From Ectocarpus siliculosus (lineage: Eukaryota; Sar; Phaeophyceae; Ectocarpales; Ectocarpaceae), in contig FN649750.1 in NCBI GenBank assembly GCA_000310025.1, positions 3,940,163 through 4,004,162 of the forward strand: a stretch of DNA of 64,000 bases. The letters run 5' to 3'. A program made the position numbers and the translations under genes. The notes below the pieces were generated by a model. The model worked only from the letters and a program-made list of their open reading frames with translations, did not search any database and was not told where the DNA came from. Every line of letters begins with the position of its first letter. Within the stretch, counting starts at the first letter, position 1. Below, in pieces: positions 19,274 through 46,526 of the stretch.

Positions 19274-20337
19274 ATGAAGGGTTTTGCGAGCACTATCTGT
19301 TTGCTCCTCGGACTGCTTCTGGCCGGACACACGACGGCGGGAGCACAACAGCAGCAGCAGAAGGAACATGTGGTACAGACATGCGAGGACCTTCCGCCTG
19401 CTGAGCTGAAAGGGACAACCACCCTCTTGAACTCGATCTCGTGCGACCCCCCGGTGGTAAGCTACAGCACAGACAGTATAGTATCGTGTGTACTCATGGT
19501 TTGCTGCCCGGCCTACCTTTCTTTATACTCTTTTTCTCTCTCCGATACTCCCTCGCTGCCTCTGCGGCGGGTTATTACCCGATAATATAATATGCGCCGT
19601 ATCACGTTTCGTCAAGTCAATGATGATGCACTCGAATAACGGGTAGAGGGCGGAGGGCATACCCTAGAGTGGCCTCGTTACTATGGTGCCTGGCGTACTA
19701 AGCAGTGTATTGCGGTGTGTGAGTGAGATTGTCTCCTTCAATGGCGCCTGATCGAATGTTGGGTGCATGTTGTGTGTGGATCCTCTCTCCTACCGTAGCG
19801 TTTGGTCGCTCTTTTTGGCTGCCTTGTCGGACAGATCAAGATTTCCCCCGGAAGCAAGAGAGTTCAGTTCCTCGTTGGCAGCCATGAGTACTACGGCATA
19901 CATGCCGTGGGTATTAGAGGTGTTGGATCCTTGTGAGAAAACGAGAGGCTTCTGTGTGATTTGGGATATTGTATGGTGGATGAGGTGTCTGTCCGACATT
20001 TAGTGCCATTTACCCGCACCGCCCGTTGACCTTTTGCTCTCTTGGCACGATATCCTGTCCTAAAGCTTCTGCACGTGAGGGAGAACGCCTTGCTGCGGTC
20101 GAACGGGGTCGTCGACACGAATGGTATCCACTTCGCTGTGCACGAACACGGTAGTCTGACCGTGCGCGCCTCGGCTGTCGAGATTAAGAGGACCAAGGTG
20201 CGTGTATTTCCGAGATATATTGTTTGAAATGCTGTCCAGCATTTCAGTGTTGTGTTGGCCGCTGGGCTGTGTTGACCGCGACTCTCGTTTTTCTTTCCTA
20301 GGGTAACGTGCCAGGGACCTTCATGTGTGGGAGTTGA
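19274..20337 (+). CDS. Small secreted protein, four-exon model with transposon-derived 3' end
   Basis: Exon 1 (19274-19456) encodes a clear signal peptide (MKGF, then a Leu-rich core, cleavage near AGA-Q) and the start of a Cys-containing mature protein (TCEDLPPAEL). Exons 2 (19835-19906, donor GTGGGT) and 3 (20066-20197) are in phase 0 and encode short beta-strand-like segments (KRVQFLVGSHEYYGIHA; LLHVRENALLRSNGVV). A fourth exon (20302-20337) reads GNVPGTFMCGS then stop, but that sequence is also found in the tyrosine-recombinase element at 45.28 kb, so the original 3' end seems to have been replaced. Function unknown; the product is probably extracellular or in the endomembrane system. Degenerate relatives lie at 38.87, 51.69 and 57.11 kb. 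Confidence 0.5.
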
Positions 20338-20344
20338 TAGGCTT
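20296..20344 (+). pseudogene. 5' fragment of tyrosine recombinase copy 1, left of LTR insertion
   Basis: From TCCTAGGG onward this matches the YR gene at 45.27 kb (QRARDLHVWELI frame) up to GGCTT at 20340-20344, where the LTR retrotransposon begins. The gene resumes at 23480 with a second GGCTT. Upstream sequence belongs to the secreted-protein gene, so the YR copy is 5'-truncated here. Confidence 0.75.
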
Positions 20345-20641
20345 TGTAAGATATACTCGTAGCATAGTAATGTGGTTGAATATGGGGCATGGATCTACGG
20401 AGATTGCAGTTGGTAGATTGCGGAGGAACAGGGAGTTTCTGCTTGGTTTCTTCGGAGATTCGATGAGTGATCTGAATTGCGTGACGGATAGGTGTGGTGA
20501 CGCTCTCTTCGGTTGCTCACTCTCTTTTGTTCTCTGCTGTTCCCTCTTCCCTCTAATACAAGACTTTCCCATCTCGGCCCTCACCGGCCGAGTAGCCTTT
20601 CTTCACAAACCTAAGCTTCGGCCTACCCGGTTTATCCAACA
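20345..20641 (+). repeat. 5' LTR (297 bp)
   Basis: Begins TGTAAGATATACTCG and ends TTTATCCAACA. It contains CT-rich sequence and the inverted CTCACCGGCCGAG near its 3' part. It appears identical to the 3' LTR at 23183-23479, implying recent insertion. Confidence 0.93.
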
Positions 20642-23182
20642 CGCTAGCATTAACGACTTTGTCGAGGGTGATTGGGTAGCACCGATGGGCAGCCGCATGC
20701 GCAGCTGACGACATCCAACCAGACGAAGAGGCCAACAGCGGCGAGGGCCTGCACAGCAGCAGCACCCACAAGACCTACAGCAGCGCTCCCAAGACCTACA
20801 GCAGCGCCATCGTTAGCTGAAGCCCGCCGTCTACTGGGCTTGTAGGCATGAACAGGCACGTGATGACTTGTCAGTTTTCGACTGCTGTCGTTATGTGTAC
20901 ACACACCCATCCATGCGGTGATGCGGTACGCCTACCTACATAGTGCCGTCAGATTCTAAACGCGGTATTACGCCGTGCGGTACTGCCGTCAAACACCAAC
21001 GCTTACTCCAACTCCACCTCCACCCGGTACTGCCGTCAAACTCTCTCTCCAACTTTTTCTCTAGAATAATCGCGGCAACACGCTGCGCGGTAAAGCCGTC
21101 AAACACCAACACTTGCTCAATCGAAACGCGACAAAACGTCGTGCGGTACAGCCGTCAAACTCCACCGCTCGGTCAAAGGCCGACTACCTGTAGCAAATGG
21201 GTAGACACAATCCAGGTTACCAGTAATCCTCAAAAACTGATGCCAGTTTCTAAACTGATGATATTGTGTGTGCGTGTAGCATGGTATTAGAAATAGTATT
21301 GTGCGCATTGTAATGCAGTGATTGGCGAGGTTTTGTGCTTTGTCTTCCTGACAGCCGTGCTGAGACCAACTTTCTCTCGCCGGCAACAACGTGATCAACG
21401 TTTTATCTGGGCTCTTATTGGTAGCTACTTTTTGAGCAGCAGGTTTAGCCTGATCAAAAATGCGTGATCAACGTTTTATCTGGACTTTCTTTCGGTAGCA
21501 GGTTTAACCTGATCAAAAACTTTTCATGTCTTGGTTGTGTTAGCGAGTACCACAGACGTGTGAAGTCTCAGCGACGTGCAACATTGATTGGTACATCCAC
21601 CTTGTTGCAGATTAAAAATCCACAATATTGACGAAATAAATGCTGATTTCCGAATATTGTTATACGTTGTCTTGAGGTTGCTATTTGTTATGAGATTGCG
21701 ATTCCAAAGTTGTGAAAGTTTCGACTTAGGATTGATTACCCTTTGTTTGGAACAGGAGCAGCGGCTGAATTATGATTTTGTGATAGAGGACTAATCAACC
21801 TCCGTTTCAGGATGATATTCAGGTATCTATGTATTGAATTGCAATGTCGCAGTGATCGGTAATTTCAGACAAACATTGCACAAGTAGGGTCCGACGACTT
21901 GAAAGTGTATTTCATTTATTGTTTTTTCTGCTGCAGTCACTACTGTGCAGAACCGGGGGGAATGTTGGTAGTATGTGATTCTCTTCAGTAGTGCTGGTTT
22001 GTTCGGAACTAATCTGCCGCCATCTTCTCCAAACGCGCGACCTGCCCTGCACCACCGCCGAGTCAATCCTCCGGGAGCGACAAATGTTCTTCCCCCACGT
22101 CAGGCGGACGCAAACATCCAAGCTCGAGTCGCGGCCAGCCGGAAAAGATGAAAGACGGAAGGCGACCGCGGCGAAGGCGTGCGAAATATCCGCTGGGGGG
22201 AGAGAAACAATGGCTTGGGCAATGGGTTAGCGCTGGAGCTTGATGGGCCGGCAAATGTAGGATTTTCGAGTGTTATTGTTTTGGTATTGAATTGGAGGAT
22301 TTTCGAGTGTTGATTGTTTTGGTATTGAATTGAAGGGTTTTCGAATGTTCTGTTTTGGTACTGGATTGGATTATATGTTTTGGCATTGAATTTGATTTGG
22401 TTTTGGTGTTCGTCGGGATTTATTTGCAGGAGGATTGTTTTTCTTGGGTTTCGACTGGATGAACATTAAATGTTGTTCTTTTGTTCTATGGTTCAGACTC
22501 CAACCCCTTCTAAACTCACGGGGGCGAATCTCCCAGAGCAGGGGGGCGCGTTGTTCTTTCGGAAGGTATTTACCTGTAGGTGGTACTAGGTTTCTAGAGA
22601 GACACAATAATAGGAATACTCACGTATTTTCTGCGCAAATGATCTTCACGCTGAACGAATGTTTGAGGATGGATGTTGTTTGATCGGACATGTGAGAGTA
22701 AAAAAGGATCCATACCATACCCAGCTGCGTTTTACCTGCAAATGGGCATGTTCATACTTACTTCTGTTTTTGCGAAATTTGTGTTGTCTTTGTAGGATTT
22801 GTAGACGGATGGATGGATGTACTGGAAGCACAACGAAGGCGAATTTCTACGAATTGATCCGTGTTTTCGAAAGTGAACGTAATGACGAGTGTCACAGATA
22901 GGTTTGGTTCGATGGATTGTTTAATGCTTGCAGTTGTGCGGGGGACATTAGTACTTTGCGGGTGTCGTTGCGGTGAAGTACTGAGAAAGGATGGACCAGA
23001 AGAAGAGCGTTTTTTCAGAGAAGGAATGAAGGCGATGAGACAAGACGTGGTGAGTTCAGGAAAATTTGCATCATCGAGTTCTTGGTTATTTGTGTGTCAT
23101 GGAGGAGTAGGATCTACGTTTGGGAAGTAAATGGAATTATATTGACTTGCCGTGTCATTACGATGCATACGAGCAGGGGGGC
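20642..23182 (+). other. Interior of the non-autonomous LTR element
   Basis: It contains short-period repeats: GCCGTCAAAC units at about 20945-21170, a GTGATCAACGTTTTATCTGG duplication at about 21389-21515, and ATTTTCGAGTGTT units at about 22260-22350. A segment at about 22030-22260 resembles about 49055-48790 of the copia element. Remaining frames look non-coding. It ends at the polypurine tract. Confidence 0.7.
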
Positions 23183-23479
23183 TGTAAGATATACTCGTAG
23201 CATAGTAATGTGGTTGAATATGGGGCATGGATCTACGGAGATTGCAGTTGGTAGATTGCGGAGGAACAGGGAGTTTCTGCTTGGTTTCTTCGGAGATTCG
23301 ATGAGTGATCTGAATTGCGTGACGGATAGGTGTGGTGACGCTCTCTTCGGTTGCTCACTCTCTTTTGTTCTCTGCTGTTCCCTCTTCCCTCTAATACAAG
23401 ACTTTCCCATCTCGGCCCTCACCGGCCGAGTAGCCTTTCTTCACAAACCTAAGCTTCGGCCTACCCGGTTTATCCAACA
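23183..23479 (+). repeat. 3' LTR (297 bp)
   Basis: Same sequence as 20345-20641, preceded by GCAGGGGGGC (polypurine tract) and followed by the GGCTT target duplicate. Confidence 0.93.
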
Positions 23480-24418
23480 GGCTTCGTAGCCTGGTGTTTC
23501 GAGTCTGAGGGTAATCTAGCGAGTACAATATCCGGAAAACTCACGGCTGTGCAACATTTTCATAGGCTGGAAGCTTCGGTGGAGCTATACTTGTCGTCTC
23601 CGATGTTGAAATGTGCGCTAAGGGGGATTGAGAGGAACCACGTGGCTATGGGGACAGTACGCCGTGTGCGCCTGCCTGTGTCTTGGCGTATGCTGCTGGA
23701 CGGGGAAACCGCAAGGCAGAACTGGGGGGAAGGGGGCAGAGTGATGTGGCTGTGTCTGTGCTTGTCCTATCTCTTCATCACACGGTCTGATGAGGTGTTT
23801 GCGAATGACGCGGGCAGGGTGCATGAGGCACACTGTCTTACGAGGGCGGACGTAGCATTGTTTGCCGGCGAGACGCAACTAGTCTTTAGTCACTATCGTA
23901 GAGCAGACCGTGTCGAGATGAGGTTTAGAGGGCACAAGGCCGATCAAAAGCAGAAAGGAAACATACGGGTTCGTACGCGAGACGAAGTCACCGGACCGCA
24001 GTCAGGTGTGAGAGCACGCGGCGGCGCCGTGGCTCTTGTGGTGGAGCGGTTATCGTGTCATGCGACTTTGCCTGACTCCGCACCGTTGGCTTCGTACCGT
24101 AGTGGAAGAGCAGTGAGAGTAGTGAGGTATAGTGCTGCCCTCCGTGCAGTCAGAGAAGTGGTAGCGAAGTCGGGGCGTAACCCCCAGGAGTACGCGTTGC
24201 ACTCGTTGCGAATTGGAGGCGCGACGGCTCTTGCATCGGGCGGAGACATCGCAGAACGAGTGATTCAGAGAGAAGGGAAGTGGAGGTCGGATGCATACAA
24301 GCCGTACACGCGAAACAATGTAGAGGATTCGCGGCGAGTGTTACGGAAACTTACAGACGGCAGCAGGATAGTATCGAGACAGCCGGGGGAGGGGACCGTG
24401 TGGGGAACGATTAGTTGA
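23480..24418 (+). CDS. Tyrosine recombinase, copy 1 (3' portion, catalytic domain intact)
   Basis: The frame is open from the LTR junction (23481, GFVAWCFESEG) to the stop at 24418. Counting from the first Met (23549), the tyrosine-recombinase residues are in order: Arg79 (LFITRSDEV), Lys130 (RGHKAD), His218-x-x-Arg221 (HSLRIGGAT), Trp245 (GKWRSDAY) and Tyr253 (KPYTR), with the usual eight-residue spacing from Trp to Tyr. Such enzymes cut and rejoin DNA through a 3'-phosphotyrosine; in DIRS/Ngaro and Crypton elements they integrate circular or extrachromosomal DNA. The gene is split from its 5' end by the LTR element, so it is probably not expressed as a whole, but it is the least damaged catalytic copy in the window. 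Confidence 0.88.
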   Translation, partial: GFVAWCFESEGNLASTISGKLTAVQHFHRLEASVELYLSSPMLKCALRGIERNHVAMGTVRRVRLPVSWRMLLDGETARQNWGEGGRVMWLCLCLSYLFITRSDEVFANDAGRVHEAHCLTRADVALFAGETQLVFSHYRRADRVEMRFRGHKADQKQKGNIRVRTRDEVTGPQSGVRARGGAVALVVERLSCHATLPDSAPLASYRSGRAVRVVRYSAALRAVREVVAKSGRNPQEYALHSLRIGGATALASGGDIAERVIQREGKWRSDAYKPYTRNNVEDSRRVLRKLTDGSRIVSRQPGEGTVWGTIS

Positions 24419-24693
24419 CATATTCGGTGGTCGTCCACAAACTGACCTCGATGTGGGTGTTGTAGAATGGTGTGTACCATTTGAGGACTTGGTCAGTTTT
24501 GGGACTCCTGCGTTTGCAGTCGTAGTCCCCCGGCTAGAATTTGTGGGGAGAGAGATGGATTTGTAAGAGTTGACGCCGGCCTTCGCAGCTAACGCGGCCG
24601 GAGAGACGATGAGCGTTTCGTGCGTCTCTCTCCCCAACACGTAGCCTAGAAACCGAAGAAATAATGAAGCAATTCAAAAGAAGACAAAATAAA
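24419..24693 (+). repeat. B1 split direct repeat of YR element copy 1
   Basis: This 3' flank of the recombinase starts just after the stop with the ATATTCGG motif and ends GACAAAATAAA. It includes an inverted pair GCCGGCC/GCGGCCGG and AGAGACG...CGTCTCTC. Homologous copies are at 34675-34952, about 35271-35526 and 46252-46526. Confidence 0.8.
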
Positions 24694-24928
24694 AGGAAGG
24701 TTTGTTCTTCGAAGCAGATAGAATAAACTGGTGTTTATTTTGTAATAGTCGAATTGGAATTTGGCTTCATTTATACCGGAAACCCAGGGTCACGGTGTTT
24801 GGAATTATTAGTCTATGGTTGGGGGTGTCATCCCGTGATCGAGTCCACGCAGGGGATGTAGCAAAGTCGGGTAACGTGGACAGCTACAGAGCGCGTGAAG
24901 CAACGGAAGGACAGCAGCAGCCGCCTTT
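24694..24928 (+). repeat. A2 split direct repeat of YR element copy 1, truncated
   Basis: Begins AGGAAGGTTTG and is homologous to the sequence upstream of the recombinase in copy 3 (44604 onward). It is interrupted at CAGCAGCCGCCT (about 24928), where Helitron-like sequence begins. Confidence 0.8.
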
Positions 24929-29413: not shown

Positions 29414-29594
29414 TGTACAAGCCCCACCCGTCCTGCATCGTTCGGTGTAAAATGATAAATGCGAAAGATAAAGACTGCGTGATTATCCAGCGGTCTTTTT
29501 CGGCAGTGGCAAATGGATGGCATGCAACCACATGTCGAAAAAAACAAACAACTAGCGGGATACTGTAGTAAATAGAACACCGCCTTCTCTGTTG

Positions 29595-34071: not shown

Positions 34072-34674
34072 AGGGTGCATGAGGCACACTGTCTTACGAG
34101 GGCGGACGTAGCGTTGTTTGCCGGCGAGACGCAACTAGACTTTAGTCACTATCGTAGAGCAGACCGTGTCGAGATGAGGTTTAGAGGGCACAAGGCCGAT
34201 CAAGAGCAGAAAGGCAACATACGGGTTCGTACGCGAGACGAAGTCACCGGACCGCAGTCAGGTGTGAGAGCACGCGGCGACGCGGTGGCTCTTGTGGTGG
34301 AGCTGTTATCGTGTCATGCGACGTTGCCTGACTCCGCACCGTTGGCTTCGTACCGTAGTGGAAGAGCAGTGAGAGTAGTGAGGTATAGCGCTGCCCTCCG
34401 TGCAGTCAGAGAAGTGGTAGCGAAGTCGGGGTGTAACCCCCAGGAGTACACGTTGCACTCGTTGCGAATTGGAGGCGCGACGGCTCTTGCATCGGGCGGA
34501 GACATCGCAGAACGAGTGATTCAGAGAGAAGGGAAGTGGAGGTCGGATGCATACAAGCCGTACGCGCGAAACAATGTAGAGGATTCGCGGCGAGTGTCAC
34601 GGAAACTTACAGACGGCAGCAGGATAGTATCGAGACAGCCGGGGGAGGGGACCGTGTGGGGAACGCATAGTTGA
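34072..34674 (+). pseudogene. Tyrosine recombinase, copy 2 (C-terminal 200 residues)
   Basis: Begins abruptly at AGGGTGCATGAGG, corresponding to residue 90 of copy 1, joined to copia-derived sequence. The frame is open to the stop at 34674 and keeps GHKAD, HSLRIGGAT, GKWRSDAY and KPYAR, but lacks the box I Arg, so it cannot be a complete enzyme. It differs from copy 1 by a small number of substitutions. Confidence 0.88.
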
Positions 34675-34952
34675 CTTATTCGGTAATCGTCCAGAAACTG
34701 ACCTCGATGTGGGTGTTGTAGAATGGTGTGTACAATTTGAGGATTGGTCAGATTTGGGACTCCTGCGGTTGCAGTCGTAGTCCCCCGGCTAGTATTCGTG
34801 GGGAGAGAGATGGATTTGTAAGAGTTGACCCCGGCCTTCGCAGCTAACGCGGCCGGAGAGACGATGAGCGTTTCGTGCGTCTCTTTTCCCAACACGTAGC
34901 CTAGAAACCGAAGAAATAATGAATGAAGCAATTCGAAAGAAGACAAAATAAA
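34675..34952 (+). repeat. B1 split direct repeat of YR element copy 2
   Basis: Homologous to 24419-24693. Ends GACAAAATAAA immediately before AGGAAGGTTTG. Confidence 0.8.
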
Positions 34953-35217
34953 AGGAAGGTTTGTTCGAAGAGCAGATAGAATAAACTGGCGTTTATTTTG
35001 TAACAGTCTAATTAGAATGCGGCTTCATTTTCTATCGGAAACCCAGGTTCACGGTGTTTGGATATATTATTGTAGTCTATAGCTGGGGGTGTCATTCCGT
35101 GATCGAGTCAACGCAGGGGCTGTAGCATAGTCGGGTGACGTGTGAGAGCTACAGAGCGCGTGACGCAACGGAAGGACAGCAGCGGCAGCCTAACGCAGTA
35201 GCGGCGACAGTTTAGAA
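34953..35217 (+). repeat. A2 split direct repeat of YR element copy 2
   Basis: Starts AGGAAGGTTTG and extends through the GCAACGGAAGGACAGCAG and AACGCAGTAGCGGC segments, matching the A1 leader of copy 3 (44604 onward) as far as CAGTTTAGAAAA. Confidence 0.8.
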
Positions 35218-35270
35218 AATCCCGCCCTCCCATCCCTTTTCTTTCAAAGGTGGGGGCATAAGTTCGGGAA

Positions 35271-35526
35271 TATTCAGTATCTCGTCGGGTGTTGTAGAAT
35301 GGTGTGTACCATTCGAGGGCTTGGTCAGTTTTGGGACTCCTGCGGTTGCAGTCGTAGTCCCCCGGCTAGTATTTGTGGGGAGAGGGACGGATTGTAAGAG
35401 TTGACGCCGGCCTTCCCAGCTAACGCGGCCGGAGTGACGATGAGCGTTTCGTGCGTCTCTCTCTCCCCAACACGTAGCCTAGAAACCGAAGAAATAATGA
35501 AGCAATTCGAAAGAAAACGTAATAAA
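35271..35526 (+). repeat. B2 split direct repeat and right end of YR element copy 2
   Basis: A second copy of the B sequence (GGGTGTTGTAGAATGG to AATAAA) follows A2, separated by about 50 bp of new sequence. This gives the order YR-B1-A2-B2 in one locus. The end at AATAAA (35526) matches the ends of B1 in copies 1 and 3 and marks the element's right terminus. Confidence 0.78.
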
Positions 35527-38500
35527 GGTGCTATTTTTTCTCTTGCCGCTGGACTGTCAGCTGAGAGCGCAATCACAGTTGTGCAGGTTTGCCGAGGCAG
35601 ACATGGCCTCATTCGTTTTCAGCACTATGGCTCAAAGGCACCCACATCGAACGGTATCCCAGTGCCCAGGTGTCCAGGACTCTGCTCTCCAACGTGCAAG
35701 TCATGGTTGCATATGCTCGAGGGCTACCACCGAACCTAGGAGTGGCAGAAGGTGTGGAGTTAGGGGACGTCGATACATAGGGCATTGTTCACTTGTTGAT
35801 TGGGTCCTCCATGGCGCTCGCGCTCCGCCACCACAAAGAGGTTGTGCAGACAGGTTTTTATCGGCCGTTTTGTCTCTTGGTGGGTTTCCACGTTATTTTG
35901 AGCAGGTGAGCAAATGCGCTGGGCTGAGAAGTAAGCAGGCACACGATGATATAGGTCCGGCCTTGCCGGCGGAGACTACTATTGGCGGCCCCAAGGACCA
36001 TGGGGCGGGGGCGGAACGTAGATACTTTCGAGTGTTGAAGCTCGAGAACATGTAGCGTCGTACACCATTTGTTGTCGGCTGTTAAAACTCGAGGTCTCGA
36101 CTTGGTGTGTGTTCCGTCCGCAAAGTGTGTTGTTTTCCGGAGTTGAAATTGTATTTTCTGCAGCTGTAACCTTCAGTCTCTCCGACTTCAATTCATTTTT
36201 GTCACCCTCTTATCCCCATTCCTCCACAATGGCCGATCTCGACCTATGGCTCGCGGCTGGTGGTGTCTTGATTATGTTTTGGTTGTTGATGTTGTCTTCA
36301 CATTAAACTCGTGTCAGTTGCTATTCCCACAATTTTGCAAAGACGCGGTCCGTGGTCACAAGTCACAAGTCTCGGTAGGGCATCCTAAATCATGGCCAGT
36401 CGCCAAATGTGATCGACTTCCGCGTGCAGTAGCCTACGCTGTCGAGTGAGTTAAGTAAGTTGAGTGAGCTAAGTGCAGTAAGCGAGTACTGAGCGTTACT
36501 TGGTTTAGTGAAAGGGATTGAGTAAGCTGGCTTGGGTGAGTGAGCGAGTTATGCATAGTGAAATAAAGTGTAGTGAATCGAGTGAGTTCAACGAACTCTA
36601 TGAAATGAGTGCATAAGCAAAAATGTTCGGGTCGAATGAACTTTGTGAGATGAGTGCGTGCAGGCGTGACGGATTGGGCATGTTTTTGAATTCCGGCTGT
36701 ATTCCGGGGTCGACAGCCCGATGACCGTCTAATGAAATGATGTCAGTCATGAATAACGGAATGCCAAACACCAACACGGGTGTTTAGCCTTCGGACTCCT
36801 CCAACCTGCCTTTGGCTACATTTTGATGGGGACCCACGGTCCAAGTGTTCCCCCCACTTCTGTGTTACGCGGTGGCGAGCTTGTGCCTTTGCATGCGTCA
36901 ACTCGATGGTTGGCCGGGTTCAGGGTGGAGTATCATTTTCTGTGTTTGCCGAACAATCACTTCCATGTTCTTTGAAAGGTTTCCTGAGAAGGGTCAGCTT
37001 CGTTTTCCCTCACAGATTACCGTGCACCTCCCTCCCTTTCCCGCCCCGCCCAAGCTGCCAACCACGGTTTTCAACCGATTTCATCTCAAAGATTCGCCCC
37101 TCGATCTGATTCGGGCGTGCCTACTCCAATTGAACCGGAAACCTTCGATCCGGGTTCGATCCGAATTGAAACGCGCGCAAGTGCCGCGAGTGACCGAAAC
37201 GTTTTATACCCAAACCCTATATAACTGAGACGAGATGCATAATCGATACAATGAAAACCGCAAGCACCTCTGGTCTAGCTTTTACCCCTCCCCCAATAAC
37301 GAGTGAAAATATTCACTAATATGGCATCCTGAAAAACGTCACCCGCCCCGCAGCCCTACATTCTCGGGACAAGGCTGAAGCAAGAAGACATGGGTGGCGC
37401 GGGTAACGGGGTTGCCTACAATCCAATCTCATTCGACATCTCGCAGCCCGGATCCTGTCGGGGGGGCTTATCATTTCCCGCAACAAGGCGTTCCTTACCA
37501 CTGCGTGTGTTGCAACGAGATGATACTTTGCTGTGAAGAAACCGCAGCAGATGATACTCTACGGTCCGTCCAGGAGGACTTATCTCCGACTTCGCGAGCA
37601 GCTGTCCTAGTTTTCGTCAAAGGCGTTCCTCCAGTTAGCCAGCGCAGCTTTAATTGTCTGCTGCTTTTCGCTCGGTCTTTCGCTCTTGGTCTTTACGTTC
37701 TGGAGTGCTGCCGCTGGTTCGAAGGCAGAAACTCAACATGACGCGCAGGAGAAGAATATCCGAGCGTACGCTGCCGACAAAGAACGCTGGCTTGGCAGGA
37801 GCCCGCGTCTCCCGCCTCGATCACACCGGAGGCCTTCAACACTGTGTGATACTCAGTGACGCTACATCCGCTGCCCCCGCTGCCCCCGATCCCGCCTCCG
37901 TCCCACCCACCGCCCTGACATCCACGCGTCTGTGTCGGAGCTTCCGTCGCCGCCGCGTGACAGGCGTCTCGAACAGGCAGAGGGACAACTCCTCTTTTTC
38001 GTACACTGCGAAACAAGCGAAAATGGTTGGTGGTGGTAGTGATGGCGGCGGCAACGGCCGGAGCAAGGTTCAGCTGGGTGCAGGATAACACCTATGATTT
38101 GGTTCGTTGATATTCGTGTTTTGTTTTCTTCTCCACCAAGGGTAGCAGCGGCAACGGCATACAACGCCCATGCAACTGCTGTGCACGAAAGCGTGTACAT
38201 TGTAGTTACAACCTCGTAAAAGGCGCTTGTGCACACACACAGCACGATTCCAAACACCATTTTTACTCGGCCCACGTTCACTACTACCGAAAGTGCGGTG
38301 TGCACCTGCAATGCCAGCGGAACAAACAGGCAGCAGCGGCTGAACAAAACAGCCGATACTCGGGCAGGCTGCTTGCCGATGACTTGGTCAACTTTACACA
38401 TAGAACGGATGGTATGATGGTATACACAGCACAGCTACGAAATAGTACACAGCCGGCAGTAAGCAGCAACACAGCAGCAACACAGTTGGGCAGAGGAGAC

Positions 38501-38867
38501 ACGACGGCCCTCACAGCAGTACGAATACTCACGAGGGATAGCTGTAGGTCAGTGTCATGTCTTCATGCTTTGCGGCCTAATAGCGCCTGCTGGAGAGCAG
38601 GGCAGGCCTTGGGGTGATATCCCTACCCCGCGCTGTGCCTCGTCAGGTCAGGTGGTTGCAGCCTCCATGACGCTGACGGTGCTTCTGGAGAAGCTTCTCC
38701 TCGGGAATCTAGTGGCTGAGCGTGCCAGGAGAGGCTGTGCCTCGGGTATCTACTGCTGTCCGTGCGCTTGTGATGCCCTCCGCTAGCCGTGTTGTACGTG
38801 GGTGGAGATCACGAGATTTCGATTCTTCACATGCGACGAATATTCTCCTGGACGTGTGCCCGAACTT
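35527..38867. other. Intergenic region with unsupported ORFs
   Basis: No recognised gene. 36432-36660 is low-complexity GTGAGT/AAGT-rich sequence. The longest plus frame (35528-36055) has no family features. Confidence 0.45.
37862..38401 (-). CDS. Possible membrane-protein exon, unrecognised
   Basis: A 179-codon minus-strand frame. Residues about 15-85 contain two to three hydrophobic stretches (SRCCLFVPLALQVHTAL; MVFGIVLCVCTSAFY; TAVAWALYAVAAATL). A GTGGAG donor-like site follows the last, and the remaining residues are low-complexity and may be intron. A further hydrophobic minus-strand segment lies at 38500-38420. No family is recognised. Confidence 0.22.
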   Translation of the reverse strand: MCKVDQVIGKQPARVSAVLFSRCCLFVPLALQVHTALSVVVNVGRVKMVFGIVLCVCTSAFYEVVTTMYTLSCTAVAWALYAVAAATLGGEENKTRISTNQIIGVILHPAEPCSGRCRRHHYHHQPFSLVSQCTKKRSCPSACSRRLSRGGDGSSDTDAWMSGRWVGRRRDRGQRGQRM

Positions 38868-39230
38868 CATCTGAAGAATTGGAACGTCTCAAATTTGGTG
38901 GTATCCAGGTGATTCTCTGTCTCATCTCCTCGAGTGCTCCCACACGCAAACCACACACCGTGCCGGCACACCATTCGCTCCTCTTGGTAGTCTCATCGAC
39001 TGCTGCACACTGCCAGCACATTGAGGCCGATGCAGGGTGTTTCGCAAGGAAGATCTCTGTGGTACTCGGGCTGCTACTAGCCGGAGTGCAGCACCAGTGG
39101 AAGAATCACCGTCGAGAAGCCAACCGTTCGTCCAAGCTGACAGGGACGACCTCCCGCTTGAACGATGTCGTGTGACCACCCCCTGGTGAGCTACAACGCA
39201 GAATAGTGTGTGCATGCCTTGGTTTCCTAC
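38868..39230 (+). pseudogene. Degenerate paralogue of the secreted-protein gene (5' part)
   Basis: From CATCTGAAGAATTGGAACG this aligns with 19068 onward: the upstream region, the hydrophobic leader (LGLLLAG) and the TGACAGGGACGACCTCC / GACCACCCCCTGGTGAGC end of exon 1 with its donor. Start Met and Cys positions are disrupted. Exons 2 and 3 are not found downstream. Confidence 0.6.
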
Positions 39231-40081
39231 CCCTCCTGTACCCAATATGTTCTCTCTTTCTCCTACACTCATTCCAATAATTTACATATTTGACATTTTT
39301 ACTGTAAATTTGGGACGTTTTTCAAGATGCGCTACAAGTGCTGTAACACCCCGAAAATCCAGGCGACAGAAAATGTCACACCCCCGGCCCCAATCACCAC
39401 CGCAAAAAGTGCCAACATGGAGGTGAGCGTCGTATTTGACACAAAACATCACCCCCCCCCCCCCCCGGCCCATGTAACAACGATCGATGGCGACGTAGTC
39501 CACAGCAGAGTGGGAGTGTCGGAATGGTGTTGTGAGGGTTTCCCAAAAGATATCGGTGATCTATTGATACTACTATTATAGACTATATCCTATTCCGTCA
39601 TGGAATGACAAACTTTCAGAATTTTCACGATCCACGGGATCTATTGATACTATACTATATCCTCTTCCGTCATGGACAAACTTTTAGAATGTTCGCGATC
39701 CACGGGCGTAATATCTTGCTCACCTCCGTTTGTCTACTGTCTAGTGGTCACAGCAGCCTATTGTATATTGTAACAGCACATAAGAGGCGACGACAAATAA
39801 ATGATGTAGTCCACACACAACCCTCATCATGAATGATGAATCGAGGAATAGATCTCCGGTGCTAATCCAACGTTAGACGCTCGAGAGACCCTCTCGGCAC
39901 TCGACAGCAGCTCCGTAGAGATTCGACGCTCTCTGTCATGGGGTACTGTACCATATGACGCACCATGAGAATATCCTTATGGCGCCCCAGACCCAACGAG
40001 GTACCATGGGAAATGTCATCACGTGACCCAAGGTGCGACCAATAAACAAAAAATGCCGACGCCTAACCCCAAAACGTTATC
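39231..40081. other. Unassigned sequence
   Basis: Contains a near-direct repeat CGGGATCTATTGATACTA / GTGATCTATTGATACTA (about 39556 and 39633) and a poly-C tract at 39451-39465. No gene is supported. Confidence 0.4.
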
Positions 40082-40706
40082 TTGAGCCTCTCCGGGGGGA
40101 GGGCGAAGCCCCCCCCTGTGTCTTGTGCCGAGAGAGAAGAACAAAATCCAACCGAAGAAACCAAGAAAAAGGAGGTACTACATTTGTACGGAATGTTGAA
40201 GGAAGGACTAGGGTTCAAGGAGTACCTACGTGAACCAATGGATGCCGTGACAGAGCTTAAGGTCAAATTTAGAACCGGAGACATTGGCTTTCGAGAATGT
40301 AAACGAAAATTTAAGAAGAAGGTAGGCGATGGAGGCGAAGCGTTCAAATAAATGTGATTGCGGCTTAATATTTGGTGAACAAGAGGGAGAGGGAAGTGGA
40401 CATGACTGAGCTGCAATAGAAGAAGGGAGATACAGGAAATGATTGAGGCATGGAATAGTCAGGAGAAGACGGTATTAATAGCTGTACTTGGGCATAGGAA
40501 GTGGGTTGAAATGGCGGGAAGTGATATCGATAGGATAGATGGACAAGGGACGACATTTTTTTCTCACTTTTGGCTAAATCTAGGAAGAAACGATTGGCCA
40601 TGGGTGATCGGTCCTTTGGGAACACAGTGCTCCGTTCTCTCGAGGACGCGTGGTCAATGGTCCATCCTTTAAGACATGCAGAGTATAAGAGTGCGCCCCC
40701 CCCCCC
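40082..40706 (+). pseudogene. 3' end of a non-LTR retrotransposon (LINE), degenerate
   Basis: The frame reads LKVKFRTGDIGFRECKRKF, then shifts. It corresponds to the C-terminal tail of a LINE ORF2, where an FRTGDxGLRER block precedes a C-x-C-x8-H-x4-C zinc motif (intact in the copy at 42.4 kb). After more frame breaks the 3' UTR includes CGAGGACGCGTGGTCAATGG and ends in a C run (about 40696-40706). 5'-truncated, as is common for LINEs. Confidence 0.65.
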
Positions 40707-41413
40707 ACAACACCATACAATTTTCATTTTTAATCGAGTCCATACAAAAACATCCTATTTAAAGGGGGCGCATTTCATGCACGAGAGTAGTACAATCCAC
40801 GTAGCCCCTGGGCCCTTGGGTGAGCTTGCCTGTAGGAAGGAGGAGGGAGGATGAAGGCGCTCGAAGCGAGCGCTCGAAGAAGCGGCTGTTTGGCCTTGTT
40901 GGATAATAAGTACAACGCACGGCAAAAGCAATTGTGTACGGGTAGGTTCATCGCCAACCCCTGTCCGGAATTTTGCCGGCTCGAGTGAGCCTGGATTGAT
41001 GATGTTCCACACATGGTTTTTATGTGTCATTTGGTCCTGGTGTGTCGTTTGATGGTGTTATTTCGCCATATTCGCCCAAGGTCAACTGGTGGTGGTGGAT
41101 GTGTCGCAAAAGGTTTGAGAAGTTCTGAGCTTTGCAGGTTGGGACGTTGTCCCAAGCACTACTGTATACTTCGAGGCTTCCAAACCAACTACTAGTGTAC
41201 CCAGTTCATCACAGCCATTGCAGGAAGTATTAGTCTACTTCTTCCGGTACCGGATGTACAACATATTTTCTCAAACTTATCGAACTTCTCTTCTAACAGG
41301 GTCCATTGCGCACGTGCCGTAACCACCAGCACACGCAAGCACGCACAATTGAGGGGGAGGAAAGCAAGAAAGCCTGCACAAAATGTACCGCGAAAAAATA
41401 AAGTTTTTTCGCG
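40707..41413. other. Unassigned sequence
   Basis: No gene or repeat I can assign. Confidence 0.4.
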
Positions 41414-42030
41414 ACCCGGGGGGGGCGGGTGTACTGATAGTCGTGCATGTCGTAGTCGTTAGACCATTGACCTCGCATCCCTACAAAGCCCAGACAGACC
41501 CCGCCGAGGTTCTCACCGGACCAGAATCTCACATCACGAAGCGCGAAGGACCGTGAGGTATTCGGCGAGTCGCATGAAGGGTGAGCTGCAACCTGCTAAC
41601 GGTGTTCGGCATCTTGTGCATACTTCCTTGCGTACGGATGACAGCTGCGTATGACTTAATTTATTTTCTGGTGCGTTCACTTCTAGAGACAGTTATAAGC
41701 ACTGTGTAACTGTCTCGAAGATGCTTGACCAATTTAACACATCGTGCAAATATCCCGTTTGCGCGGAGTGAGGGTTCTCGACCCCCCACAACACAATCTA
41801 CTCGACCACCATTGATGGTTACCGCCCAAGAAAAAAACAAACGCTAAAGGAAAAGCGGTAACCTTGTTGCCGAGCTGACGAAGTGATCGGCTTGTTATAC
41901 AACATCGCTGCCAAACGACGAAACCCCAGCCCCGATGGCATACACCGGGGGGGGCGGCATGTTTTACAACGTCGTTGCCAAGCGACGAACACCCAACCCC
42001 AATGGCAAACATCGGGTGGTGGGGGTTCGG
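41414..42030 (-). repeat. Poly-C-ended dispersed repeat family R2, minus copy
   Basis: Reverse complement of the units at 60243-61394. It contains two copies of the TTTTACAACGTCGTTGCCAAGCGACG head block (about 41890-42005) and the tail ATTGACCTCGCATCCCTACAAAG next to a G run (41420). The G run is the complement of the poly-C 3' end. Confidence 0.8.
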
Positions 42031-42560
42031 AGGAGGGGGGCGTACTATTATCGTTCGCGTGCCTCAGCGGTTAGGCCATTGACCACGCGTTCTCGAGAGG
42101 AAGGAGCGTTGTTCCCATAGGACCGATCACCGATGGCCAATCGTTCCTTCCATTTTGCCAAGGTGGCTCAAAAATGTCTTCCCTAGTCTATCTATCCTAA
42201 CGATATCACTTGTACCGATATAACTTCCCGCCTTTTCAAAGCACTTCCGATGCCCCAGTACAGCTACCGTCTTCTCTCTATTCCATGCCTTAAACATCTC
42301 CTCCCTTTACCTCCCTTCAATTTCTCCCTGCTCAGTCATGTACACCTCCCTCTCCTAGTCGTACAACTGACATTCCGCGATTACATGAACCCTGTCTTCG
42401 CACTCGGAGCCGCAATCGCATCTGAGTTTGTCTTCTTCGTCTATCGTATTATGTCTTCGTCGACGTTCGCGAAGGCCTATGTCTCCGGTCCTGAATTTGA
42501 CCTCAAGCTTTGTATGTTTTGGAGCTGTAGATTATGGCTGGGAACTAGGAAGGAATGAAG
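42031..42560 (-). pseudogene. 3' end of a non-LTR retrotransposon (LINE), minus copy
   Basis: On the minus strand 42525-42330 reads FRTGDIGLRERRRRH and then CDCGSECEDRVHVIAEC, the Cys-Cys-His-Cys knuckle of LINE ORF2 C-termini. Two stop codons and continued LGHRK / DIVRIDRLGKTF segments follow. It shares these and its 3' tail with the copy at 40.1-40.7 kb. The tail ends in CCCCCC on the minus strand next to repeat R2. Confidence 0.75.
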
Positions 42561-43542
42561 GTTTGAGGCGCACGTCGTCGTGCAACTAGCTGCTGCACGC
42601 ACACGGACGGGTCATTTGTGATAATTGATTCAACAAGTAACTTCCGTGAGCAAGCGGTGACATGTTCATACGCAAATTACCACGGGCACTTCCACTTTCG
42701 GCGCCTTTTACCTCCCTGGCAAGACACCGAAAAAATGCCGGTACCACTCCCCCCCCGCGGAGGTGTCTGCCTTTAGTAAAATAATATTTTTTTCGCGTGC
42801 CCCTGTTTCAGCGACTCGGCATATTGGTATTCGTTGACAAACGTCCGAGAGACGCCAGTGTTAGGTCGTATGATCAGCTGCGACGAAGATAATATGCATC
42901 GTTTGATTCTTGGATAGTAGACAGTTTCGGAACCAAAAAAAAGCTGCAGTAGAGAAATATATTTTGAGTTAAGCCATCGTTCTGAGGATCGTTCCTGACA
43001 GTCTCGCCAGAACCCAAGATAAGGGGAAAATAATCAGATTTAACAGCGGAGGGAGGCTCGTTTGGTGGAAAATTTTGCCAACTTTTCGATTTAGCAGCTA
43101 TCTTTGAAATAACACACCAGGCACCACACACAACACATCATCAGGCACCACCCACACGCACGCACACACACAGCCTGCAAGAGCGTGTCCAGCGGCCGCC
43201 CAAAAAAAAAACAGCGCCCAGCACAAAGGCCCTGGAGTTGCCGCGCCACCAACACAGAAAGGGGGAGGCTGCACGGTCAGAAAACCAAGTTGGGGTTGGT
43301 TGTTGCGCGGCTTTAGGTCAGCAACACGCGCCCGTCAACACACAGGTTGAAGCAAGGGGGAGAAAGAGCGCCGGAACGAACCGCGGCAACCATCGACGTA
43401 GAGGAGGTGGCAGCACCACCAGAAAAGGGCAGAGAGGAGGAAGAGCACGCAGTTGCCTTCTGGTGACGCGCCGCAAGAGTATTCTCTGCTTCTACTTGAG
43501 AGAGCGTGTTTGACTTCGGTGTGCCCCCGCCCCCAAAAACAC
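42561..43542. other. Unassigned sequence
   Basis: Contains A-rich and CACACA-rich low-complexity stretches (about 43098-43175). No gene is supported. Confidence 0.4.
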
Positions 43543-44052
43543 AGGAAGGTTTGTTCGTCGAAGCACATAGAATAAACTGGTGTTTATTTTGTAACAGCCG
43601 AATTAGAATTTGGCTTTATTTCTACCGGAAACCCAGGGTCACGGTGTTTGGAATTATTAGTCTATAGTTGGGGGTGTCATTCCGTGATCGAGTCCACGCA
43701 GGGGCTGTAGCAAAGTCGGGTAACGTGTGAGGGCTACAGAGCGCGTGAAGCAACGGAAGGACGGCAGCAGCCGCCTAACGCAGCAGCGGCGGCAGTTTAG
43801 AAAGGGACGGGACGGGACACGGCGCAAGCATTGGGGAAGCGACCAGCGCGCCCTCGGGACCCTCCATATAAAGGTGTGTACTCGTGCCCAACATCCATCG
43901 CGTCGGCCGTGTTCCTATCCGCGTCCCGCTGCTCTTGTGACCTCACCGCTGCGTGCATTAGCACGAGGGGGGAGGGTGCAGTAAGATAAGCGGCGGCACG
44001 CCACCGCAGTCTCGCTCGCCACGCCGCTCAGATAGGTACCTTCCCAAACATG
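43543..44052 (+). repeat. Solo A1 leader of the YR element
   Basis: Near-copy of 44604-45109. Begins AGGAAGGTTTG, contains TATAAA (43867-43872), and ends at CCCAAACATG. No recombinase follows; the next 32 codons after this ATG are open but match nothing else here. It is a second 5' end of the family, lying about 1 kb upstream of copy 3's own A1 in the same orientation. Confidence 0.75.
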
Positions 44053-44603
44053 GGATGCGGTTCATCCCACCCGAGATGTACTCTCGCTGAACAAAAAATC
44101 AACCGAAAAAAAAGAAAGCGCGGGGCCTGTTGTATGGTCGGTCGCTGACTTGTCGCGGTTGCTGTACGTGCCGCGATAGCAGCCATTGTACTGCACAGGG
44201 TGGAGGAACCTTGCGGCATCGGACATAACCAATCGACCCGCGGCAGTAGGGCATGATGCTGTCAAGAGTATGCACATGGTGCAGGTGCCTTGTTTTCTGT
44301 TTCCCCCGGCTTACTCGGTACTACTCGCCGGTACAACCTTGTCTGTGCCGCGCACAGACGGGCAATATAGCTGAAGGCATCGACGATAATATGCTCACGT
44401 AAGCTATCGTCTCCACGGATGGTATTTACAAGTCCCCACTGATGGTATTGACAAGTCCCACGGTATACAAAGCGGCCGCATACGTAATCGGAAAGTGCAT
44501 TCAACAGCATTCACGGGAACGAATAAAGGCAAAAACCACATGCTTGCGAGAGAAAGACTCAAAAGAAAAAGACTGAAAAACAAAGAAGACGAAAAACAAA
44601 AAC
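44053..44603. other. Sequence between two YR-element leaders
   Basis: The first ATG in-frame stretch encodes a Cys/Lys/Arg-rich 32-residue peptide. The last 60 bp are A/G-rich and resemble the end of a B repeat (GAAAAACAAAAAC before AGGAAGG). Nothing else is recognised. Confidence 0.4.
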
Positions 44604-45109
44604 AGGAAGGTTTGTTCGTCGAAGCAGATAGAATAAACTGGTGTTTATTTTGTAACAGTCGAATTAGAATTTGGCTTCATTTTCTACCGGAAACCCAGGG
44701 TCACGGTGTTTGGAATTATTAGTCTATAGTTGGGGGTGTCATTCCGTGATCGAGTCCACGCAGGGGCTGTAGCAAAGTCGGGTAACGTGTGACAGCTACA
44801 GAGCGCGTGAAGCAACGGAAGGACAGCAGCAGCCGCCTAACGCAGTAGCGGCGGCAGTTTAGAAAAGGGCGGGACGGGACACGGCGCAAGCATTGGGGAA
44901 GTGACCAGCACGCGACTCTCCATATAAAGGTGTGTACTCGTGTCCAACATCCATCGTGTCGGCCGTGTTCCTATTCGCGTCCCGCTACTCTTGTGACCTC
45001 ACCGCTGCGTGCATTTAGCACGAGGGGGGAGGGTGCAGTAAGATAAGCGGCGGCAAGCCAACGCAGTCTCGCTCGCCGCGCCGCTCAGATAGGTCCCTTC
45101 CCAAACATG
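44604..45109 (+). repeat. A1 repeat and leader of YR element copy 3
   Basis: Begins AGGAAGGTTTG. Its first 280 bp match the A2 repeats of copies 1 and 2; the rest is leader up to CCCAAACATG, shared only with 43543-44052. Confidence 0.82.
44923..44928 (+). promoter_or_regulatory. TATA box of the YR element leader
   Basis: TATAAA in the context CTCTCCATATAAAGGTGTG, conserved in the solo leader (43867-43872). The stretch just downstream is also conserved, consistent with an internal promoter inside the element's 5' region. Confidence 0.5.
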
Positions 45110-45148
45110 TAAAGAGACATAAAACTACGTGTTGTATGCATAAGGAAA

Positions 45149-46251
45149 AAGAAGATGAAAAAAGAAGAAGAAGGTGATGCGCTAGATTCGCGTCTTCGTC
45201 TAGAAGGACTTACACGTCAGGCTTCAACTCTTGGTGCACGTTTCGGAGGCTGACGGAGAAGCCCAAGTTCCTAGGGCAACGTGCCAGGGACCTTCATGTG
45301 TGGGAGTTGATAGACTTCGTAGCCTGGTGTTTCGAGTCTGAGGGTAATTTAGCGAGTACAATATCCGGAAAACTCACGGCTGTGCAACATTTTCATAGGC
45401 TGGAAGCTTCTGTCGAGCTAGACTTGTCGTCTCCGATGTTGAAATGTGCGCTAAGGGGGATTGCGAGGAACCACGTGGCTATGGGGACGGTACGCCGTGT
45501 GCGCCTGCCTGTGTCTTGGCGTATGCTGCTGGACGGGGAAAGCGCAAGGCAGAACTGGGGGGAAGGGGGCAGAGTGATGTGGCTGTGTCTGTGCTTGTCC
45601 TATCTCTTCATCACACGGTCTGATGAGGTGTTCGCGAATGACGCGGGCAGGGTGCATGAGGCACACCGTCTGACGAGGGCGGACAAATAATTGTTTGCCG
45701 ACGGGACGCAACTAGACTTTAATCACTATCGTAGAGCAGACCGTGTCGAGATGAGGTTTAGAGGGCACAAGGCCGATCAAGAGCAGAAAAGCAACATACG
45801 GGTTCGTACGCGAGACGAAGTCACCGGACCGCAGTCAGGTGTGAGAGCACGCGGCGGCGCGGTGGCTCTTGTGGTGGAGCTGTTATCGTGTCATGCGACG
45901 TTGCCTGACTCCGCACCGTTGGCTTCGTACCGTAGTGGAAGAGCAGTGAGAGTAGTGAGGTAAAGTGCTGCCCTCCGTGCAGTCAGAGAAGTGGTAGCGA
46001 AGTCGGGGCGTAACCCCCAGGAGTACGCGTTGCACTCGTTGCGAATTGGAGGCGCGACGGCTCTTGCATCGGGCGGAGACATCGCAGAACGAGTGATTCA
46101 GAGAGAAGGGAAGTGGAGGTCGGATGCATACAAGCCGTATGCGCGAAACAATGTAGAGGATTCGCGGCGAGTGTCACGGAAACTTACAGACGGCAGCAGG
46201 ATAGTATCGAGACAGCCGGGGGAGGGGACCGTGTGGGGAACGGATAGTTGA
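45149..46251 (+). pseudogene. Tyrosine recombinase, copy 3 (longest, two premature stops)
   Basis: The open frame begins just after a GCTAG acceptor-like site. It includes an N-terminal SAM-like segment absent from the other copies (SSSRRTYTSGFNSWCTFRRL, QRARDLHVWELIDFV), then the whole catalytic region. A TAA at 45688-45690 and a second TAA at 45961-45963 replace sense codons seen in copies 1 and 2, and the frame continues after each. Box I Arg, HSLRIGGAT, GKWRSDAY and KPYAR are all present. Full length from the N-terminal block is about 366 codons. Confidence 0.85.
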
Positions 46252-46526
46252 CATATTCGGTAATCGTCCAGAAACTGACCTCGATGTGGGTGTTGTAGAA
46301 TGGTGTGTACCATTTGAGGACTTGGTCAGATTTGGGACTCCTGCGGTTGCAGTCGTATTCCCCCGGCTAGTATTCGTGGGGAGAGAGATGGATTTGTAAG
46401 AGTTGACGCCGGCCTTCGCAGCTAACGCGGCCGGAGAGGCGATGAGCGTTTCGTGCGTCTCTCTCCCCAACACGTAGCCTAAAAACCGAAGAAATAATGA
46501 AGCAATTCGAAAGAAAACAAAATAAA
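46252..46526 (+). repeat. B1 split direct repeat of YR element copy 3
   Basis: Homologous to 24419-24693, ends AATAAA at 46526. No A2/B2 follows, so the right end of this copy is lost or this is its terminus after recombination. Confidence 0.8.

What the first reader, a model, noticed from the sequence alone, without database searches (positions are those of the whole stretch)
34072..46526. Tyrosine-recombinase element with split direct repeats but no visible reverse transcriptase
Piecing copies together gives A1 (44604) - YR - B1 (46526) in copy 3, and YR - B1 (34675) - A2 (34953) - B2 (35271-35526) in copy 2. A1-...-B1-A2-B2 is the split direct repeat architecture of Ngaro/DIRS retroelements, yet in copy 3 only about 40 bp separates the leader ATG (45109) from the recombinase frame: no RT, RNase H or methyltransferase. 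Either this is a deletion derivative mobilised in trans that still carries its own YR, or a YR-only element class using DIRS-like termini. The catalytic set Arg, Lys, HxxR, Trp and Tyr is complete in copy 1.
Basis: partly seen in the sequence, partly recalled or inferred. Interest (0 to 1): 0.82.

Follow-up and report, generated by a model that had tools for sequence, protein, structure and literature searches.

The report
Retrotransposons that lost RT by splicing
The odd element belongs to a jumping-gene family in which most copies found have lost the reverse transcriptase gene but kept the gene that inserts them, and the loss looks as if spliced RNA was copied back into the genome more than once.

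Summary
The window carries fragments of an Ngaro-type tyrosine-recombinase (YR) retrotransposon family with split direct repeats A1-...-B1-A2-B2. Copy 3 misleads: it is an old, internally deleted element with a young 510-bp A1-leader piece inserted in it.

Genome-wide, the abundant ~6.5-kb form lacks RT/RNase H. Its junction pattern occurs at 104 sites; the RT-retaining donor pattern occurs at 6, and an RT search found 8 close RT-bearing copies. So this is no YR-only class but an RT-less derivative.

The missing segment (2054 bp) can be read as a GT-AG intron, CAG|GTGTGG...TGGCAG|G, whose removal puts YR in frame with the start of ORF2. Two subfamilies share the junction, yet one RT-less clade is rejected (p-AU 0.0004). 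A lineage in a second family (~30% divergent) uses the same donor and an AG 6 nt upstream. Best reading: a spliced, YR-encoding RNA was reverse-transcribed in trans and founded RT-less families at least three times. Splicing is inferred; there are no RNA data, and recurrent microhomology deletion remains a rival.

The parts
20295..20348 (+). Copy 1: 54 bp of the YR gene upstream of the inserted LTR element
   Evidence: blastn 90.7% to the C474 copy
20344..23478 (.). LTR element inserted in copy 1's YR gene (LTRs TG...CA and 5-bp flanking repeat GGCTT read by eye); boundaries approximate
   Evidence: 300-bp direct repeat 20345-20644 = 23183-23482 at 100%; sequence
23479..24418 (+). Copy 1: YR gene, 311 codons open from 23483 to the stop at 24416
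24456..24693 (+). Copy 1: B1 repeat
   Evidence: 98.3% to B
24691..24926 (+). Copy 1: A2 repeat, cut at its 3' end
   Evidence: 95.8% to A1
34072..34674 (+). Copy 2: 3' part of the YR gene
   Evidence: frame
34712..34952 (+). Copy 2: B1 repeat
   Evidence: 94.2% to B
34950..35219 (+). Copy 2: A2 repeat
   Evidence: 91.2% to A1
35287..35526 (+). Copy 2: B2 repeat, ending near the element's 3' terminus
   Evidence: 94.6% to B; end motif
43541..44603 (+). Copy 3 (older element): own A1, leader and post-leader
   Evidence: 94.5% and 89.6% to element positions 3-1092
44600..45109 (+). Young A1-leader piece (510 bp, 100% to young copies) inserted in copy 3
45111..45163 (+). Copy 3: post-leader resumes after the insertion
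   Evidence: 89.1% to element positions 1089-1143
45190..46251 (+). Copy 3: YR gene, with two internal stops
   Evidence: 96.7% over 45190-46526; stops
46289..46526 (+). Copy 3: single B repeat; no A2 or B2 follows
   Evidence: 97.1% to B; end

Best explanation
The window copies belong to an Ngaro-type YR retrotransposon family. RT-bearing members have an A-leader region, non-coding tandem repeats, a gag-like frame with a CCCH-like motif, an RT/RNase H frame (ORF2), a YR frame and B repeats. The abundant members lack RT/RNase H, with a junction that can be placed exactly between GT and AG. Most likely the RT-bearing element makes its recombinase from a spliced RNA: the 2.05-kb RT/RNase H segment is an intron, and splicing fuses the first ORF2 codons (38 in family 1, 13 in family 2) in frame to YR. 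That RNA keeps both ends of the element, so RT made by other copies can reverse-transcribe it and YR can integrate the product. The resulting RT-less copies encode YR without further splicing and amplified to about 100. This happened at least three times (subfamily 1, subfamily 2, and a lineage in a second family). Shown: the anatomy, the RT-bearing relatives, the recurrence, the GT-AG-compatible junctions, the in-frame fusion and the counts. Inferred: splicing, trans-mobilisation, and YR expression from the spliced RNA.
For: RT-bearing relatives: L069 aligns to the ~6.5-kb copy on both sides of a 2.05-kb RT/RNase H segment. The search with that segment scored 34 of 34 candidates and found 8 copies, L069 included, at 93-100% over at least 1970 of 2050 query bases. 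The ORF2 frame of L072 is open for 739 codons with, by eye, a YVDD box and RNase H motifs; RVT_1 is its only Pfam match (E 0.019). Junction: GT-AG is possible in 4 of 4 RT-loss comparisons (subfamily 1 v C74, 2054 nt; subfamily 2 with left parent C187 and right parent C74; C110 and C19 v C206, 2057 nt; C187 alone also gives 2054). It is not possible in the 4 other deletions that could be resolved (two gag deletions, L036, L053). Recurrence: left of the junction subfamily 1 and RT-bearing C74 read CTATC, subfamily 2 and RT-bearing C187 CAATC. C74 and C187 diverge evenly in 5' side, RT and YR (94.6, 94.5, 95.6%), so C74's RT was not imported separately. The tree joins subfamily 1 to RT-bearing C74/C156 with support 100, and a single RT-less clade is rejected, p-AU 0.0004. 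Third lineage: C110 and C19 read CTACCTCAG|TGGCAG, using an AG 6 nt upstream of the other acceptor, a site present in RT-bearing C206; 3 such sites in the genome, control 0, up to 2 mismatches. The donor 12-mer CAGGTGTGGATG is the same in C74, C187, C206 and C211, the last two about 70% identical to the family in YR DNA. The fusion is in frame in both families (where only the start of YR was fetched). Among possible deletions with at least 4 bp of microhomology within 100 nt of the sites, 7 of 141 (C187) and 4 of 129 (C206) allow GT-AG. Counts: 104 against 6 pattern sites, up to 1 mismatch, controls 0.
Against: No RNA data were available. The family-1 junction also has a 6-bp microhomology and the family-2 junction a 4-bp one. 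Within 100 nt of the family-1 sites only 9 possible deletions have 6 bp or more, and the observed one is among them and is the only GT-AG one, so a process that prefers long microhomology could hit it repeatedly. The family-1 acceptor has no clear pyrimidine tract. The donor motif also encodes conserved residues (GVD). Family 2 has only 3 such sites; 3 other family-2 YR loci read near the site have other upstream sequence: two keep RNase H pieces, one is unrelated. The RT has no strong profile match and no PDB match. YR has no Pfam, PHROGs or NCBIfam match. The structure model was useless (mean pLDDT 30). Deletions in L033, window copy 3, L068 and the subfamily-2 gag were not resolved or not tested for GT-AG.
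Confidence: 0.7

Rival explanations
1. RT/RNase H was lost by deletion between short direct repeats (GCAGGT in family 1, TCAG in family 2) during reverse transcription or repair, and the same repeat was used more than once.
For: Both junctions lie in microhomology of 6 and 4 bp; the family-1 one is among only 9 possible deletions with 6 bp or more near these sites. Other internal deletions, with microhomology of 1 to 3 bp where resolved, do occur in the family.
Against: It must hit the same donor three times and give GT-AG and the same reading frame each time. GT-AG-compatible deletions with at least 4 bp are 7 of 141 and 4 of 129 near these sites. In family 2 the acceptor moved 6 nt to another AG.
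Confidence: 0.22
2. RT was lost once, and the RT-less junction spread between subfamilies by recombination or gene conversion.
For: Subfamilies 1 and 2 have the same junction; recombination between co-packaged RNAs is usual in retroelements (established knowledge).
Against: Diagnostic bases beside the junction follow each subfamily's own RT-bearing relative; 5' side and YR side tell the same story; one RT-less clade is rejected; family 2 has a different acceptor.
Confidence: 0.06
3. A YR-only DNA element class that merely resembles DIRS/Ngaro at its ends.
For: 104 RT-less junction sites against 6 RT-retaining donor sites.
Against: RT-bearing relatives share leader, gag-like region, YR and B repeat, and ORF2's first codons remain fused to YR.
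Confidence: 0.02

Closest known systems
Ngaro retrotransposons (e.g. of Cafeteria burkhardae, PMC8547959, passages read)
   Same: A1-[ORFs]-B1A2B2 split direct repeats, gag-like ORF1, RT/RNase H ORF2, YR ORF3, about 6 kb, scattered solo AB repeats.
   Different: The abundant copies here lack RT/RNase H at a GT-AG-like junction. The passages seen mention types with ORF1 deleted, but no RT-less form and no splicing.
SIRE, the truncated derivative of VIPER (PMC6681497, passages read)
   Same: Non-autonomous derivative of a YR retrotransposon that keeps terminal repeats.
   Different: SIRE corresponds to the region with A2 and B2; here a full YR frame is kept.
TOC1 of Chlamydomonas (recalled only; one search found no paper)
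   Same: Recalled as an element with split repeats, an internal tandem array and no RT.
   Different: Recalled as having no YR; here YR is kept and RT-bearing relatives are in the same genome.
Spliced retroviral RNAs used as templates: MLV SD' RNA (PMC2925334) and spliced HIV-1 RNAs (PMC1868081); only abstract openings seen in the listing
   Same: A spliced RNA is packaged and/or reverse-transcribed.
   Different: Those are LTR retroviruses; here the element uses YR, and the products founded amplified genomic families.

Membership tests
Ngaro-type YR retrotransposon (the family as a whole) | Split direct repeats A1 ... B1-A2-B2 | tested here: met
   A1=A2 267 bp at 99.6%, B1=B2 238 bp at 100% in one copy; B1-A2-B2 in 23 of 30 YR loci
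Ngaro-type YR retrotransposon (the family as a whole) | Tyrosine recombinase | tested here: met
   Rests on the HSLR, GKW and Y motifs read by eye and on hhalign to a YR of the same genome that passes the Phage_integrase cut-off (probability 71, E-value 3.6e-5 over 50 columns). No direct Pfam hit
Ngaro-type YR retrotransposon (the family as a whole) | RT and RNase H between gag and YR | tested here: met
   In RT-bearing copies only; motifs read by eye, RVT_1 a weak match, E 0.019 and 0.14
Ngaro-type YR retrotransposon (the abundant ~6.5-kb form) | RT and RNase H between gag and YR | tested here: not met
   Junction without them at 104 sites; one copy (C474) was read in pieces from A1 to B2
Ngaro versus DIRS/PAT | No methyltransferase between RNase H and YR; no inverted terminal repeats | tested here: met
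   The RT/RNase H frame overlaps the YR frame in L070 (4437-4620 of the sense strand), leaving no room; the repeats found are direct
Ngaro-type YR retrotransposon (the family as a whole) | Integration without target-site duplication | tested here: inconclusive
   5' ends are the same in 29 of 29 A loci, which were chosen by a query starting there. Both flanks were read only at C22, a composite insertion, and share AAA; no empty site was available
Ngaro-type YR retrotransposon (the family as a whole) | Place in an RT or YR tree with known Ngaro, DIRS, PAT, VIPER | not tested
   No reference sequences of those groups were fetched
Crypton | YR DNA transposon without RT and without long terminal repeats | tested here: not met
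   Long split repeats and RT-bearing relatives

The most novel reading that the evidence does not exclude
YR retrotransposons can divide their genes between two RNAs of one locus: unspliced RNA for RT/RNase H and a spliced RNA for the recombinase, both perhaps read as extensions of Gag through a UAG that precedes ORF2. The spliced RNA is itself a replicating genome, so the element repeatedly splits into RT-bearing and YR-bearing lineages that need each other, and the YR-bearing one wins in copy number.
Probability: 0.35. Interest if true: 0.78.

Novelty: new variant of a known kind. Interest (0 to 1): 0.62.

Why it matters
How DIRS/Ngaro elements express a recombinase that lies downstream of and overlaps RT is, to my knowledge (recall), open; a spliced RNA that fuses the start of pol to YR would answer it, and genomes would carry its fossils. 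It would also give a simple route by which a retrotransposon splits into partly defective partners, a YR counterpart of spliced retroviral RNA being reverse-transcribed. It warns that 'YR elements without RT' need not be a new class. It can be tested with RNA reads alone.

Tried and rejected
YR-only class: rejected by RT-bearing relatives. Copy 3 as a model of the family: rejected. One deletion inherited by both subfamilies: my first reading, rejected. Every deletion being an intron: rejected; the two subfamily-1 gag deletions, L036 and L053 are not GT-AG. Purifying selection on YR after RT loss: not shown. dN/dS between subfamilies 1 and 2 is about 0.4, but their split includes RT-bearing ancestors; 41 of the 45 matches that span the whole YR query have no stop (101 of 755 candidates scored), which such young copies could show anyway. 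Viral contigs: no relatives. Single-sequence structure model: mean pLDDT 30, not used. PDB searches: none for the YR, none for the RT, only unrelated weak hits for the YR alignment. RVT_1 scan of the genome: 150 of 1041 candidates scored; the five loci fetched look LINE-like by eye and are not this family. The all-N stretch upstream of YR in L059 was not pursued. Host identity was not established; a brown alga is a guess from recall and from an Ectocarpus repeat paper.

Rows dropped before counts, and limits: the AU test used 19 sequences (12 subfamily 1, 2 subfamily 2, 3 RT-bearing, 2 outgroup); deletion copies, window copies and the other subfamily-1 rows of the tree were left out. Of the 104 junction sites 100 were listed and 96 showed letters (77 CTATC, 19 CAATC). 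The donor pattern found 6 of the 8 RT copies, so pattern counts undercount older copies. In one search, 28 of 29 loci passed the anchor word. Genome DNA and protein searches score only part of their candidates (40 of 470, 40 of 292, 40 of 434, 101 of 755, 40 of 208), so hits there are lower bounds; one search scored 34 of 34. Of the five deviating sites among the 100 listed, four were fetched; one of these (L068) turned out to be a deletion copy without RT.
Full report
What is in the window. Three blocks share a YR coding region. Copy 1 keeps an open YR frame of 311 codons, B1 and part of A2, and is cut by an LTR element. Copy 2 keeps the 3' part of YR, B1, A2 and B2. Copy 3 is two things in one: an older element (43541-44603, 45111-45163, 45190-46526) and a 510-bp A1-leader piece, identical to the C474 copy, inserted in it (44600-45109).

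The family. The A-leader and YR queries hit dozens of places. One copy (C474, ~6.5 kb) was read in three pieces. It has A1 and leader (510 bp), about 600 bp of post-leader, about 1.9 kb of tandem repeats, remains of a gag-like region with (by eye) a coiled-coil-like part and a CCCH-like motif, a 415-codon frame ending in YR, and B1-A2-B2. In a relative, L071, the gag-like frame gives a weak CCCH match (E 0.036). A1 and A2 match over 267 bp, B1 and B2 over 238 bp. In 29 of 29 A loci the 5' end is GGAAGG in different flanks, though the query began there; B ends read ...ACAAAATAAA with few exceptions. Of 30 YR loci, 23 have B1-A2-B2, 4 end at a single B (window copy 3, L033, L035, L036) and 3 differ otherwise (L038, L040, L048). 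I saw no RT frame in the C474 copy.

RT-bearing relatives. A pattern for the HxxR box found 111 sites, 0 in the control; 95 of the 100 listed have one identical word. Four of the five others were fetched. L069 has the same A-leader, post-leader, repeats, gag-like region, YR and a B repeat, but also RT/RNase H between the gag-like region and YR. L070 and L071, about 68-70% identical in YR DNA, also carry RT/RNase H; L068 is a deletion copy without it. The RT segment of L069 finds 8 copies, itself included, at 93-100% over at least 1970 of 2050 query bases. In L072 (C74) a gag-like frame is followed by an RT/RNase H frame open for 739 codons to the end of the stretch. RVT_1 is its only Pfam match and is weak (E 0.019; 0.14 for L070); the identification rests mainly on the YVDD box and RNase H motifs read by eye from the alignment.

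The junction. Against L072 the ~6.5-kb form lacks two stretches of gag (about 511 and 80 bp) and the RT/RNase H segment. The RT loss can be placed so that the lost piece starts with GT and ends with AG: TCAGCAG|GTGTGG...GACTGGCAG|GTTCAG, 2054 nt. The two gag losses cannot, nor can the deletions in L036 and L053. L033 and the subfamily-2 gag loss could not be resolved, and the deletions in window copy 3 and L068 were not tested. The join leaves ORF2's first codons in frame with YR, giving the 415-codon frame. In RT-bearing copies YR matches only from residue 36 of that frame.

Recurrence. A second RT-less subfamily (L073, L074; 93-94% to the first in YR DNA) has the same RT junction but another gag deletion. 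Beside the junction subfamily 1 reads CTATC like RT-bearing C74, subfamily 2 CAATC like RT-bearing C187. C74 is closer to subfamily 1 than subfamily 2 is, on both sides of the junction, and C74 and C187 are evenly diverged along 5' side, RT and YR. The YR tree puts C74 and C156 with subfamily 1 at support 100. Forcing all RT-less copies used into one clade is rejected, p-AU 0.0004 (19 sequences). In the second family, C110 and C19 (78 and 76% to L071) have CTACCTCAG|TGGCAGGCGC. Against RT-bearing C206 this is the same donor and an AG 6 nt upstream of the other acceptor, 2057 nt, again GT-AG and again in frame with the start of YR. Three such sites exist, control 0, up to 2 mismatches. Three other loci of that family read near this place do not show it. 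The donor 12-mer CAGGTGTGGATG is identical in the four RT-bearing copies compared.

Chance. Near these sites, possible deletions with at least 4 bp of microhomology that would also allow GT-AG are 7 of 141 (C187) and 4 of 129 (C206). But with at least 6 bp there are only 9 near the family-1 sites, and the observed one is the single GT-AG case among them. Three lineages at one donor, all GT-AG-compatible and in frame, fit splicing better than independent deletion, but the microhomologies keep deletion alive as a rival.

Numbers. The RT-less junction pattern occurs at 104 sites and the RT-retaining donor pattern at 6, with 0 in both controls (up to one mismatch). The donor pattern found 6 of the 8 RT copies, so older copies are undercounted. 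Subfamily-1 loci with the full gag-YR stretch are 98.9-100% identical to C474, so the burst is recent. The YR frame is uninterrupted in 41 of the 45 matches that span the whole 414-residue query (101 of 755 candidates scored).

Mechanism. RT-less copies need RT, and probably Gag, from other copies; they keep the terminal repeats thought necessary for the Ngaro cycle (established knowledge). In five loci (C474, C74, C187, C206, C211) the ORF2 frame is preceded by TAG followed by GGG, and in C474, C187 and C211 the gag-like frame runs into that stop in the same frame. C110 has TAG followed by AGG; subfamily-2 C10 and C176 and family-2 C19 do not show it. This suggests readthrough, which would make Gag-Pol from unspliced RNA and Gag-YR from spliced RNA. 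This last step is speculation.

Side observations on recombination. At C12 the order B1-A2-B2-A3-B3 is inferred from hit positions 569 bp apart. L038 has B1 followed by A and a leader, as in tandem elements. At C22 a 377-bp A1-leader piece precedes a full A1. The C22 flanks share AAA.

Literature. Searches covered only open-licence PubMed Central papers. PMC3266345, PMC3783388 and PMC9210276 were searched for intron and splicing terms with no hit. PMC8547959 has two hits for intron, of which the one shown concerns virophage genes, and none for splicing. PMC3212892, on Cryptons, was seen in passages only. PMC6681497 was not searched for introns. The Ectocarpus paper (PMC12477816, section 5 part 1 and passages) reports 15 Ngaro families at 2.45% of that genome; its supplements could not be read. 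So an earlier description of this derivative there, or in subscription papers, is not excluded.

Noticed in passing
window 20344-23478: LTR element with near-identical LTRs (300 bp at 100%) inserted in copy 1's YR gene; flanking GGCTT repeat read by eye.
   Followed up: partly
L001 (C76), 1447-2040: A different YR that passes the Pfam Phage_integrase cut-off, the only match of that family search (47 of 47 candidates scored); its element was not worked out.
   Followed up: partly
C12:1581870-1583177: Hit positions suggest B1-A2-B2-A3-B3, an extra A-B unit in tandem.
   Followed up: no
L027 1122-1500 (C22) and window 44600-45109: Partial A1-leader pieces (377 and 510 bp) that begin at the normal 5' terminus but stop in the leader, one directly before a full element.
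   Followed up: partly
L003, L067, L053 (element interior): About 1.9 kb of tandem repeats in the 6.5-kb copy read; distances between A1 and YR differ between near-identical copies, as if the array length varies.
   Followed up: no
window about 28960-29450; L059 1-1308: Stretches reading N (withheld or assembly gap); not pursued.
   Followed up: no
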